A stretch of DNA of 64,000 bases from Loripinus fragilis (taxonomy: Eukaryota; Mollusca; Bivalvia; Lucinida; Lucinidae), in assembly GCA_964019695.1 (NCBI GenBank), contig OZ026526.1, positions 7,149,254 to 7,213,253 on the forward strand, written 5' to 3'. The position numbers and the translations under genes are program-made. The notes below the pieces were generated by a model that ran no database searches, was not told the DNA's origin, and saw only the letters and a list, made by a program, of their open reading frames with translations. This document shows positions 1,824 through 4,322 of the stretch, in pieces (within the stretch, counting starts at the first letter, position 1; the number at the start of each line of letters is the position of its first letter).

Positions 1824-1933
1824 AGTGCCAGCTACTGCTCCCGAGGCGAAAGACTCCATAAATGTCAGTTTCTTCTGGCCCGTCTCGAGCAACACTTTAG
1901 CCTTCATCTGCTCATAGCCTAACCAATAAACAG
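1824..1933 (-). CDS. SLC25A40: SLC25A39/40-like exon 6 (helix 4-5), beside a duplicated acceptor array
   Basis: Acceptor TTTTTGCTTGTAG, donor GTAAGTACAATC; phase 1 in, phase 0 out, 37 codons with the shared one. It reads AVYWLGYEQMKAKVLLETGQ and on to FASGAVAGT, matching the end of helix 4 and the start of helix 5 in SLC25A40 (MYWYNYEILK in human). The acceptor and first 33 bases of this exon are the copy at the gene-3' end of a 65-bp tandem array just upstream in the transcript. The following exon (third signature) is not in the window. Confidence 0.9.
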
Positions 1934-4322
1934 CTACAAGCAAAAATAGTGCATAAGTTTACAGGCCTTTATCTGCTCATAGCCAAACCAATAAACAGCT
2001 ACAAGCAAAAATATGGTGTAAGTTTACAGGCCTTCATCTGCTCATAGCTTACCAATAAACAGCTACAAGCAAAAATAGTGCATAAGTTTACAGACCTTTA
2101 TCTGCTCATAGCCAAACCAATAAACAGCTACAAGCAAAAATAGTGCATAAGTTTACAGGCCTTTATCTGCTCATTGCCTAACCAATAAACAGCTACAAGC
2201 AAAAATAGTGCATAAGTTTACAGGCCTTTATCTGCTCATAGCCAAACCAATAAACAGCTACAAGCAAAAATAGTGCATAAGTTTACAGGCCTTTATCTGC
2301 TCATAGCCAAACCAATAAACAGCTACAAGCAAAAATAGTGCATAAGTTTACAGACCTTTATCTGCTCATAGCCAAACCAATAAACAGCTACAAGCAAAAA
2401 TAGTGCATAAGTTTACAGACCTTTATCTGCTCATAGCCAAACCAATAAACAGCTACAAGCAAAAATAGTGCATAAGTTTACAGGCCTTTATCTGCTCATT
2501 GCCTAACCAATAAACAGCTACAAGCAAAAATAGTGCATAAGTTTACAGGCCTTTATCTGCTCATAGCCAAACCAATAAACAGCTACAAGCAAAAATAGTG
2601 CATAAGTTTACAGGCCTTCATCTGCTCATAGCCAAACCAATAAACAGCTACAAGCAAAAATAGTGCATAAGTTTACAGGCCTTTATCTGCTCATTGCCTA
2701 ACCAATAAACAGCTACAAGCAAAAATAATTGCGTAAGTTTAGTAAATTGTTTCCTTTGTAAATAGCTCAACTACAGTAAAACCTGTGTAAAACGGCCACT
2801 CAAAAATAGGTAAAACAAAGATCTTAATGACAAATGGAGCATTCTGCAATACTTTTGACCTGCATTATGGGATAATTGGTCTTGAAAACAAATTTTTGGT
2901 CTTTTTGAGAGTGGTCGTTTAAGACAGGTTTTACTGTCTGTGACTAGATTGGATAAAATATGATGATATCTTGGCTCCAAATTATAATTTTGTCATCAAA
3001 TGACCCCAATGTTGTTGTCAGAGAACTTGAGAGAAGAGCAAGAGAGTTTTCAAAGTATGGAATAAAAGATTGAAGTCATGTGTTTTGGTTTGTTTGATTT
3101 GATTCTATACGTCCCATCAACAATCTTTCAGTTATATAGTGATGGCTCTTCCTGGGTTGAACCAGTACTAAGCTAGGATTAATGTGTCTTGCTCAAGGAC
3201 ACAACACAGAGACGCAAGTGAGGCTCGAACCAGTGGCCCCTCGGTCTCGAGTCAAGCACTCTGCCACTGAGCCACTGCGCTCCCCCATGTGTTTCGGCTA
3301 AAAAGGAATAGTTCAAAGGAGACTTGAAAAAACAACATTTTTTATCAACTCTTGGAGAAGATAAGCAAACAATAAAGAAAATGAAATCCAAACGCTCCAC
3401 ATACAATATATTAGAGTAATTGTTTTGACATCATGTTTTGCATGTAAGCCATGTGCCGATATTGGTCAATCAATAATCACAGGCTATTTAAACAAATGGC
3501 CAATTGTAAATCAGCTAATTGGTAGCAATACATTTTAGCGAACATTCAGTTTTATGGAATAAATTTCAGCTTTTTCTGGGCACATACGTTTTAGTGAAGT
3601 TTCAGCCAAATATACATTTTAGTGAACTTCTAGAAAATCTCACCAGTGATATGTAGATATTTGTATCAATAACTGATGCATAAATATAGAGGCAAATTCA
3701 AAACAGAGATCCGATGTCAACTTTCAGCCAGCCTTAGTTAAGTGTGCGTAATAAAAAATATTTTTCTTATTTCTCAACCAAAACATATGTTGTGGGTGCT
3801 CAAAAGATCCAACTTAGTCATATTTGAGTACCCAAAACATATGTTAAAACTGATGCGTTAGAAAATATTTACAATTTGTACGCTTAAACATACGCTTTTA
3901 GTCTCAATCAAAATTAATCACATGCCATTTTTTCTAAAATTCATGGCCCCTATGCTATCTGTTCCTATATTCCTGTGTTTAGAACTGAAACAAAATCCCT
4001 GTCATTTAGAATACCTGAAAAGGGGACATCCCTGAGTAAAGAAGGGCCAAGGCCCTTCCAGAGTGACAAGATCCCTTCATGTTTAAGAGTGTCTTTGGTG
4101 AACTTTTGAACTTCTCGGTATGTTAGCTTCTCTGATTGCATCTTTGTTCTGATTAGTTCTAGGGGTGAGATCACAGTAGCTGCCCACACTGAAATACAAG
4201 AAATACATTATTGTCAGGGGATTTTCTGCCCATCTCTAGTGGCCGAGTTTCGGCCCCATTCCCAAACAAAAATAGCCACATTTTTCCCAATACATGTACC
4301 ATGTCTAATTTTCCCAATTAAG

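What the first reader, a model, noticed from the sequence alone, without database searches (positions are those of the whole stretch)
1921..2730. A splice acceptor and exon start amplified 13 times in a mitochondrial carrier gene
Seen: the 65-bp unit contains the whole 3' splice site of carrier exon 6 plus its first 33-35 coding bases, and 12 extra copies lie upstream in the pre-mRNA. Every copy keeps TTTTTGCTTGTAG and an open frame (VYWFGYEQIKA). Using an early acceptor without a further splice runs into TAG at the next copy's acceptor, a premature stop. Each copy also has CT|GTAAAC 36 bases after its acceptor. If that served as donor, it would define a frame-neutral 36-base microexon (phase 1 to 1) adding 12 residues in helix 4. 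The splicing machinery must either ignore 12 near-perfect decoys, use them as a poison device, or insert copies. Inference: a new route to tune glutathione-carrier output, or a tolerated, polymorphic minisatellite.
Basis: partly seen in the sequence, partly recalled or inferred. Interest (0 to 1): 0.8.

Follow-up and report, generated by a model that had tools for sequence, protein, structure and literature searches.

The report
Splice-acceptor minisatellite in mitochondrial carrier gene
In a mollusc gene for a mitochondrial carrier, the end of an intron and the start of the next exon have been copied in tandem into 13 near-identical splice sites, and the same kind of repeat turned up in four other genes of this genome, so it looks like a recurring DNA-repeat accident that the cell's splicing machinery has to tolerate.

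Summary
A 65-bp unit holding about the last 30 bases of intron 5 and the first 33 of exon 6 of an SLC25A39/40-type carrier (minus strand) is repeated 13 times at 1900-2741. Only the copy at 1933 continues into the exon; the other 12 are intronic decoys. The gene has nine coding exons and an intact 356-residue frame, and no second copy was found. Corrections: copy 2062 has a 1-base deletion and an immediate stop, and the proposed 36-base microexon has a weak donor and no counterpart in 117 relatives.

This fits a 'mirage' minisatellite, described in amphioxus: tandem repeats across an intron-exon boundary that do not disturb splicing there. New here: a second array in the same gene (exon 9, five acceptors) and four more in four other genes (8, 3, 10 and 2 acceptors), all acceptor-type. 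A closely similar copy of the gene with the ten-acceptor array has one acceptor, so such arrays come and go.

Most likely: duplication, then unequal exchange; the acceptor adjoining the unique exon body is used. A poison-exon role is not excluded but unsupported. No RNA data could be examined.

The parts
1900..2741 (-). Array A: tandem array, 13 copies of a 65-bp unit (64 bp at copy 2062): intron 5 3' end (branch-point-like CTTAY, pyrimidine-rich tract, TAG) plus first 33 bases of exon 6
1824..1933 (-). True exon 6 (110 nt) of SLC25A39/40-type carrier; acceptor TTGTAG|CTGTTT at 1933, donor GGCACT|GTAAGT
   Evidence: Mito_carr PF00153
1966..2741 (-). Twelve decoy acceptor plus exon-start copies inside intron 5 (first exon bases at 1998, 2062, 2127, 2192, 2257, 2322, 2387, 2452, 2517, 2582, 2647, 2712)
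2031..2062 (-). Exon part of decoy copy 2062: 1-base deletion, immediate in-frame stop, and a new donor-like TTG|GTAAGC
2680..2741 (-). Edge copy (2712): its upstream side is unique intron (TTTACTAAACTTACG...); the most divergent copy, marking the original intron side of the array
4015..4188 (-). Exon 5 of the carrier, donor TTTCAG|GTATTC
1934..4014 (-). Intron 5 (2,081 nt) that holds the decoys
6966..7099 (-). Exon 4
12331..12398 (-). Exon 3
13427..13623 (-). Exon 2
19474..19552 (-). Exon 1 with start codon (exons 7-9 lie left of the window: C15:7140573-7140492, 7138626-7138546, 7135445-7135301)

Best explanation
It is a minisatellite that arose by tandem duplication across the intron 5/exon 6 boundary and then grew by unequal exchange or slippage, i.e. 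an acceptor-type 'mirage' minisatellite. SHOWN from sequence: 13 copies, each with branch-point-like motif, pyrimidine-rich tract, TAG and exon start; unique intron only before copy 2712 and unique exon only after copy 1933; no variation between copies over the 13-base acceptor core and the first 12 exon bases; an intact 356-residue gene if 1933 is used; a second such array at exon 9 of the same gene and four more in four other genes. INFERRED: the founding duplication joined a CTAAA in the intron to a CTAAA in the exon; splicing uses 1933 because, among near-equal acceptors, only that one adjoins the unique exon body with its donor 110 nt away; stray use of the 12 decoys gives an early stop and an mRNA open to nonsense-mediated decay; hence the array is close to neutral and copy number is free to change.
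For: Array anatomy and shared variants between non-adjacent copies, with a divergent edge copy. Only acceptor 1933 of 13 tested gives an open frame; the full gene is intact, and among 19 matches of its protein in the assembly the other carriers are at most 31% identical. 117 aligned relatives show no extra residues at the site (these are 117 of the 120 listed of 2306 hits). The same acceptor-plus-exon-start structure recurs: exon 9 of this gene (5 acceptors), C19 carrier (8), C17 carrier (3), C583 carrier (10), C17 TCP1-family gene (2). The C15 copy of the C583 gene has one acceptor, an empty site. Precedents: amphioxus globin and Adh3 mirages, with RT-PCR pointing to normal splicing (PMC3087553, section 16 read); lancelet PGBD5 and troponin C (PMC3902484, one passage read); human CBS 844ins68, where a duplicated intron 7/exon 8 junction is resolved by use of the distal site (PMC2630376, passages read).
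Against: No RNA evidence: which acceptor is used is inferred. With duplicated acceptors an upstream one can be preferred in some systems (recalled, not checked), so decoys may be used at some rate. Copy-number variation of this array itself is untested; the empty-site comparison is for another locus and may be a paralogue rather than an allele. An exon-centred scan of 46 carrier exon matches with 80-base flanks found no splice-boundary array (7 of 46 had some repeat hit: six in flanks, one a degenerate 40-base copy of a 3' coding end), so such arrays are not everywhere. Array B decoys show an excess of synonymous private changes (8 of 13), which plain decay of unused copies does not predict.
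Confidence: 0.87

Rival explanations
1. Poison or tuning device: use of any of the 12 decoy acceptors makes an early stop and lowers output of the glutathione carrier, and copy number sets the share lost.
For: 12 of 12 decoys lead to an early stop upstream of three further exons; no copy varies over the 13-base acceptor core and first 12 exon bases (with the edge copy left out, a run of 27 invariant columns among 10 variable ones has P about 0.03 under random placement, but the variable columns are not independent events).
Against: The stop is the acceptor's own TAG falling in frame, so it needs no selection. Similar arrays occur in unrelated genes (a TCP1-family gene, other carriers) and one is absent from a closely similar gene copy, which argues against a gene-specific device.
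Confidence: 0.08
2. Source of 36-base microexons (acceptor of a decoy plus CT|GTAAAC) that add 12 residues.
For: The insertion leaves the frame open in 11 of 12 decoys.
Against: Donor score 1.9 or -0.5 bits against 4.5-10.4 for eight real donors; 0 of 117 relatives examined have an insertion; 3 of 12 decoys carry Asn where 117 of 117 relatives have Tyr or Phe; 1 of 12 is frameshifted.
Confidence: 0.02
3. Assembly artefact: one boundary wrongly multiplied by the assembler.
For: Tandem repeats are a known source of assembly error (the amphioxus paper reports that the draft version of one such array looked aberrantly assembled, PMC3087553).
Against: Copies differ by substitutions, a deletion and a 4-base variant cluster; the contig is 96.5 Mb long, and other arrays of the same kind lie on other contigs. 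Raw reads could not be examined.
Confidence: 0.03

Closest known systems
'Mirage' minisatellites of amphioxus (Adh3, globins BflGb6/BflGb9, troponin C, PGBD5); PMC3087553, PMC3902484
   Same: Tandem repeats across an intron-exon boundary, decoy splice sites in the intron, copies homogenised inside and diverged at the edge.
   Different: Here most likely a mollusc; 13 copies; two arrays in one gene; six of six found are acceptor-type, whereas in amphioxus globins both boundaries are seen. Splicing and instability (6 vs 3 units in two BflGb6 haplotypes, somatic instability at Adh3) were tested there, not here.
Human CBS 844ins68 (PMC2630376, passages)
   Same: A 68-bp duplication of an intron-exon junction; the distal copy is used, so the mRNA is normal.
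   Different: One extra copy, a population polymorphism with the mRNA known; here 12 extra copies and no RNA.
Human CBS 31-bp VNTR across exon 13/intron 13 (seen as c.1444_1467+7(16_21) in PMC2630376; exon number and effect on splicing recalled, Lievers et al. 2001 not read)
   Same: Multi-copy VNTR spanning a splice boundary.
   Different: Donor side (from its c.1467+7 end), 16-21 copies, 31 bp.
Intron gain by tandem genomic duplication of AGGT (PMC3443670, passages)
   Same: Tandem duplication involving splice signals.
   Different: No new intron is made here; an existing intron is lengthened by decoy acceptors.

Membership tests
Mirage minisatellite (amphioxus type) | Tandem repeat whose unit spans an intron-exon boundary and its splice site | tested here: met
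Mirage minisatellite (amphioxus type) | Concerted evolution inside the array, edge copies left out | tested here: met
   Edge copy 2712 differs from the others by 13-16 ungapped positions (an indel inflates this); the other 12 differ from each other by 0-9. The other edge, copy 1933, is not especially divergent (1-6).
Mirage minisatellite (amphioxus type) | Does not disturb normal splicing (RT-PCR) | not testable with these tools
   No RNA data; only acceptor 1933 keeps the frame
Mirage minisatellite (amphioxus type) | Copy number unstable between haplotypes | tested here: inconclusive
   This array: one place in the assembly. Sister array E: 10 acceptors on C583, 1 on C15 in a closely similar copy, allele or paralogue
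Intron gain by tandem duplication | A new intron between duplicated AGGT sites | tested here: not met
   Nine coding exons account for the whole protein; the decoys lie within one existing intron
Transposable element | Dispersed copies elsewhere in the genome | tested here: not met
   One match for 1900-2760 in the whole assembly (that search skips very common words)

The most novel reading that the evidence does not exclude
In this mollusc lineage, tandem amplification of 3' splice sites together with exon starts is a recurring, ongoing genome-wide process, biased to acceptors over donors, which keeps supplying genes with near-identical competing acceptors. Some decoys, as in array B at exon 9 with its excess of synonymous changes and its alternative 17-residue tail, may be in use, so the process is a live source of alternative ends and of intron growth.
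Probability: 0.35. Interest if true: 0.72.

Novelty: new member of a known kind. Interest (0 to 1): 0.5.

Why it matters
In the papers seen here, mirage minisatellites are described from amphioxus only. Six in five genes of one mollusc genome after a partial look suggests that the process is wider. Each array is a natural experiment in splice-site choice: here 13 acceptors with the same core sequence compete in one intron of a gene with no second copy found, so position or context must decide. An array present in one gene copy and absent from a near twin gives a way to study how such arrays are born.

Tried and rejected
Microexon, poison-exon, artefact and transposon readings: see rivals and membership. 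Rfam (gathering thresholds) and ARAGORN scans of the window: no hits. A link between the arrays and the palindromic ~140-bp dispersed repeat (inside array B, between the copies of array F) looked attractive, but that repeat occurs at 89 places in 346 kb of fetched sequence (overlapping loci counted more than once, array B's own copies included), so its presence is near background and I do not claim a cause. Of the other TRF arrays of period 30 or more in fetched loci, I displayed those of L007 (the same array appears in L008 and L029), L019, L033, L042, L047, one of three in L041, one of two in L023, and parts of those in L011 and L020; by eye none showed an exon. Not displayed: the arrays of L004 and L005, two of L041, one of L023. 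An exon-centred self-comparison of 46 carrier exon matches with 80-base flanks gave repeat hits for 7, six in flanks and one (L020) inside a match; the five loci displayed looked like dispersed repeats or intron pieces, and L020 is a degenerate 40-base copy of a 3' coding end downstream of the gene, with no splice boundary. That scan missed arrays C, D and E because their boundaries lie outside the stretches compared. A Fisher test of 2 of 9 exons here against 0 of 46 is therefore void and not used. Donor scores use a textbook frequency matrix recalled from memory. Paper searches bearing on novelty; no mollusc case was evident in the titles and abstract starts listed. Five papers were opened: PMC3087553 (passages and section 16), PMC2812944 (outline and passages), PMC2630376, PMC3902484 and PMC3443670 (passages only).

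Full report
WHAT IS THERE. The window's left end carries the minus-strand gene of a mitochondrial carrier. Exons 1-6 lie at 19552-19474, 13623-13427, 12398-12331, 7099-6966, 4188-4015 and 1933-1824, exons 2-6 with AG acceptors and all six with GT donors. Exons 7-9 lie left of the window; the nine coding exons give an intact 356-residue protein with three Mito_carr stretches, E 2.3e-67. The nearest proteins are SLC25A40-type: 79-80% for two unnamed proteins on 1.2-kb contigs, and 61-65% for the best named hits, gastropods and bivalves, so the organism is most likely a mollusc (inference). A protein search of the assembly (1.99 Gb, 685 contigs) gives 19 matches: the nine exons of this gene, the four exon-9 decoys described below, and six other carrier places at 24-31% identity.

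ARRAY A. At 1900-2741 a 65-bp unit is repeated 13.0 times, 95% matches. Each unit holds a CTTAY motif, a T-rich tract, TTGTAG, and the first 33 bases of exon 6 (32 in copy 2062); 13 of 13 have TTTTTGCTTGTAG. Sequence upstream of copy 2712 is unique intron; sequence after copy 1933 is the unique rest of exon 6. Copy 2712 is the most divergent; inner copies share variants between non-neighbours (LGNE at 2712, 2517 and 2192; ATG for Met at 2647, 2062 and 1933), as in a minisatellite with unequal exchange. The intron side and the exon side share CTAAA at the two ends of the unit; a match of five or more at a fixed junction has a chance of about 0.7%, but this is post hoc and the present units carry three extra bases between, so this origin is a suggestion.

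WHAT THE COPIES CAN DO. Of 13 acceptors only 1933 keeps the frame. Eleven decoys run into the TAG of the next acceptor; decoy 2062, with a 1-base deletion, stops at once. Differences among the exon parts that can be read as codons are three replacements (Phe/Leu, Tyr/Asn, Met/Ile) and no silent change, besides copy 2062. The protein search gave 2306 hits, of which 120 were listed; 117 of these fit the motif used to align them (3 did not and were dropped): the Tyr is Tyr 116 times and Phe once, and none has an insertion. So the decoys do not look held to a protein function. The donor for a 36-base microexon is weak in all decoys. The deletion in 2062 happens to create TTG|GTAAGC, stronger than three of the eight real donors, and three copies hold AAG|GTCTGT; neither gives a frame-neutral exon (lengths 10 and 32, read from the sequence).

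NOT ALONE. Comparing each of the nine exons with 40-base flanks to the gene region shows extra copies of the boundary for exon 6 and exon 9 only. Array B: five acceptors at C15:7136366, 7136138, 7135893, 7135665 and 7135445, spacing 220-245; a unit holds the acceptor and the first 79 bases of exon 9, and a copy of a palindromic ~140-bp dispersed repeat stands between successive copies; use of any of the four decoys would give a 351-residue protein with a 17-residue tail in place of 22 residues. Private changes in the decoys of array B are silent in 8 of 13, against 22-30% expected (P 0.0025-0.018 by the rate assumed). These were counted by hand from the alignment, with the last codon at the unit's edge left out, after seeing the pattern. 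It may mean use of decoys, or passage of variants from the working copy into the array.

A family search gave 84 Mito_carr exon matches. I held 44 loci (30 of about 3.2 kb, 14 of 7.6-10 kb; 182,613 distinct bases, 52 of 84 matches, 25 gene clusters, this gene not counted). TRF arrays of period 30 or more in them include three exon-spanning ones, in 3 of the 25 clusters: C, C19:27901721-27900905, eight acceptors, 116-118 bp, exon YNKGRTPTGLETWCMGACAGVCGQCSSYPLDIVRRRMQTAG (Mito_carr E 1.2e-7); D, C17:64069835-64069518, three acceptors, 158-159 bp, unit includes what looks like the start codon (E 1.5e-9); E, C583:163389-164893, ten acceptors in blocks of four and six, 79 bp, exon GSRACFLRDIPFSAIYFP (Mito_carr E 0.0093, under the cut-off; filed as Aralar-like from memory). 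A TCP1-family search (50 matches) showed two neighbouring matches to the same part of the profile; the sequence confirms F: a decoy acceptor with about 110 bases of exon start, 357 bases upstream of the true one (C17:22107075 and 22107432), the dispersed repeat between them. All six arrays are acceptor-type; this was not a systematic test for donor-type arrays. Against a general presence: an exon-centred scan of 46 matches found no splice-boundary array, though it was blind to C, D and E.

EMPTY SITE. The C583 gene has a closely similar copy on C15 (95% over 466 bases around one exon, 83-94% in the other main aligned stretches). There the same exon has a single acceptor, and the flanks align to either side of the C583 array. 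Whether C583 is the other haplotype or a recent duplicate is not settled.

HOW IT MOST LIKELY WORKS. Duplication across the boundary, then growth by exchange. Splicing is thought to ignore the decoys because only the last acceptor adjoins the unique exon body with its donor 110 bases on. This step is inferred from precedent: RT-PCR in amphioxus (PMC3087553, section 16; PMC3902484, one passage) and CBS 844ins68, where the distal junction copy is used (PMC2630376, passages; that text says 'donor' though the work it cites has '3' splice site selection' in its title). Human internal tandem repeats at exon-intron boundaries can also change splicing (PMC2812944, passages), so tolerance is not guaranteed.

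VERDICT. A real, well-formed acceptor-type mirage minisatellite: a new member of a known kind, in a new phylum as far as the listings of the paper searches show. The unexpected part is its recurrence in one genome.

Noticed in passing
window 1645-1780, 3766-3891, 7675-7817, 14508-14642 and many loci: A palindromic ~140-bp dispersed repeat (hairpin core, predicted -54.5 kcal/mol as RNA) occurs at 89 places in 346 kb of fetched sequence, overlapping loci included.
   Followed up: partly
L003:5301-6366 (C15:7135301-7136366), left of the window: Second exon-boundary array in the same gene (exon 9, five acceptors), whose decoys would give an alternative C-terminal tail.
   Followed up: yes
L015:2335-2388 and 1800-1853 (C18:52789903-52789956 and 52789368-52789421): 54 bases of an intron 3' end (pyrimidine-tract side) of a carrier gene are duplicated nearby, the second copy lying between two copies of the dispersed repeat.
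   Followed up: partly
window 5951-6366: A 129-bp unit repeated 3.2 times in intron 4 of the carrier gene.
   Followed up: no
C583 and C82 against C15:3.44-3.46 Mb and C3:32.24 Mb: Small contigs hold roughly 82-96% identical second copies of carrier gene stretches, allele or recent duplicate; L011 (C3) has a 192-bp x4.6 array whereas TRF lists none of period 30 or more in L046 (C82).
   Followed up: partly
window 31415-32915 (-): Three open frames of 130-134 codons in a row that may be one degraded or intron-split coding region, not identified.
   Followed up: no
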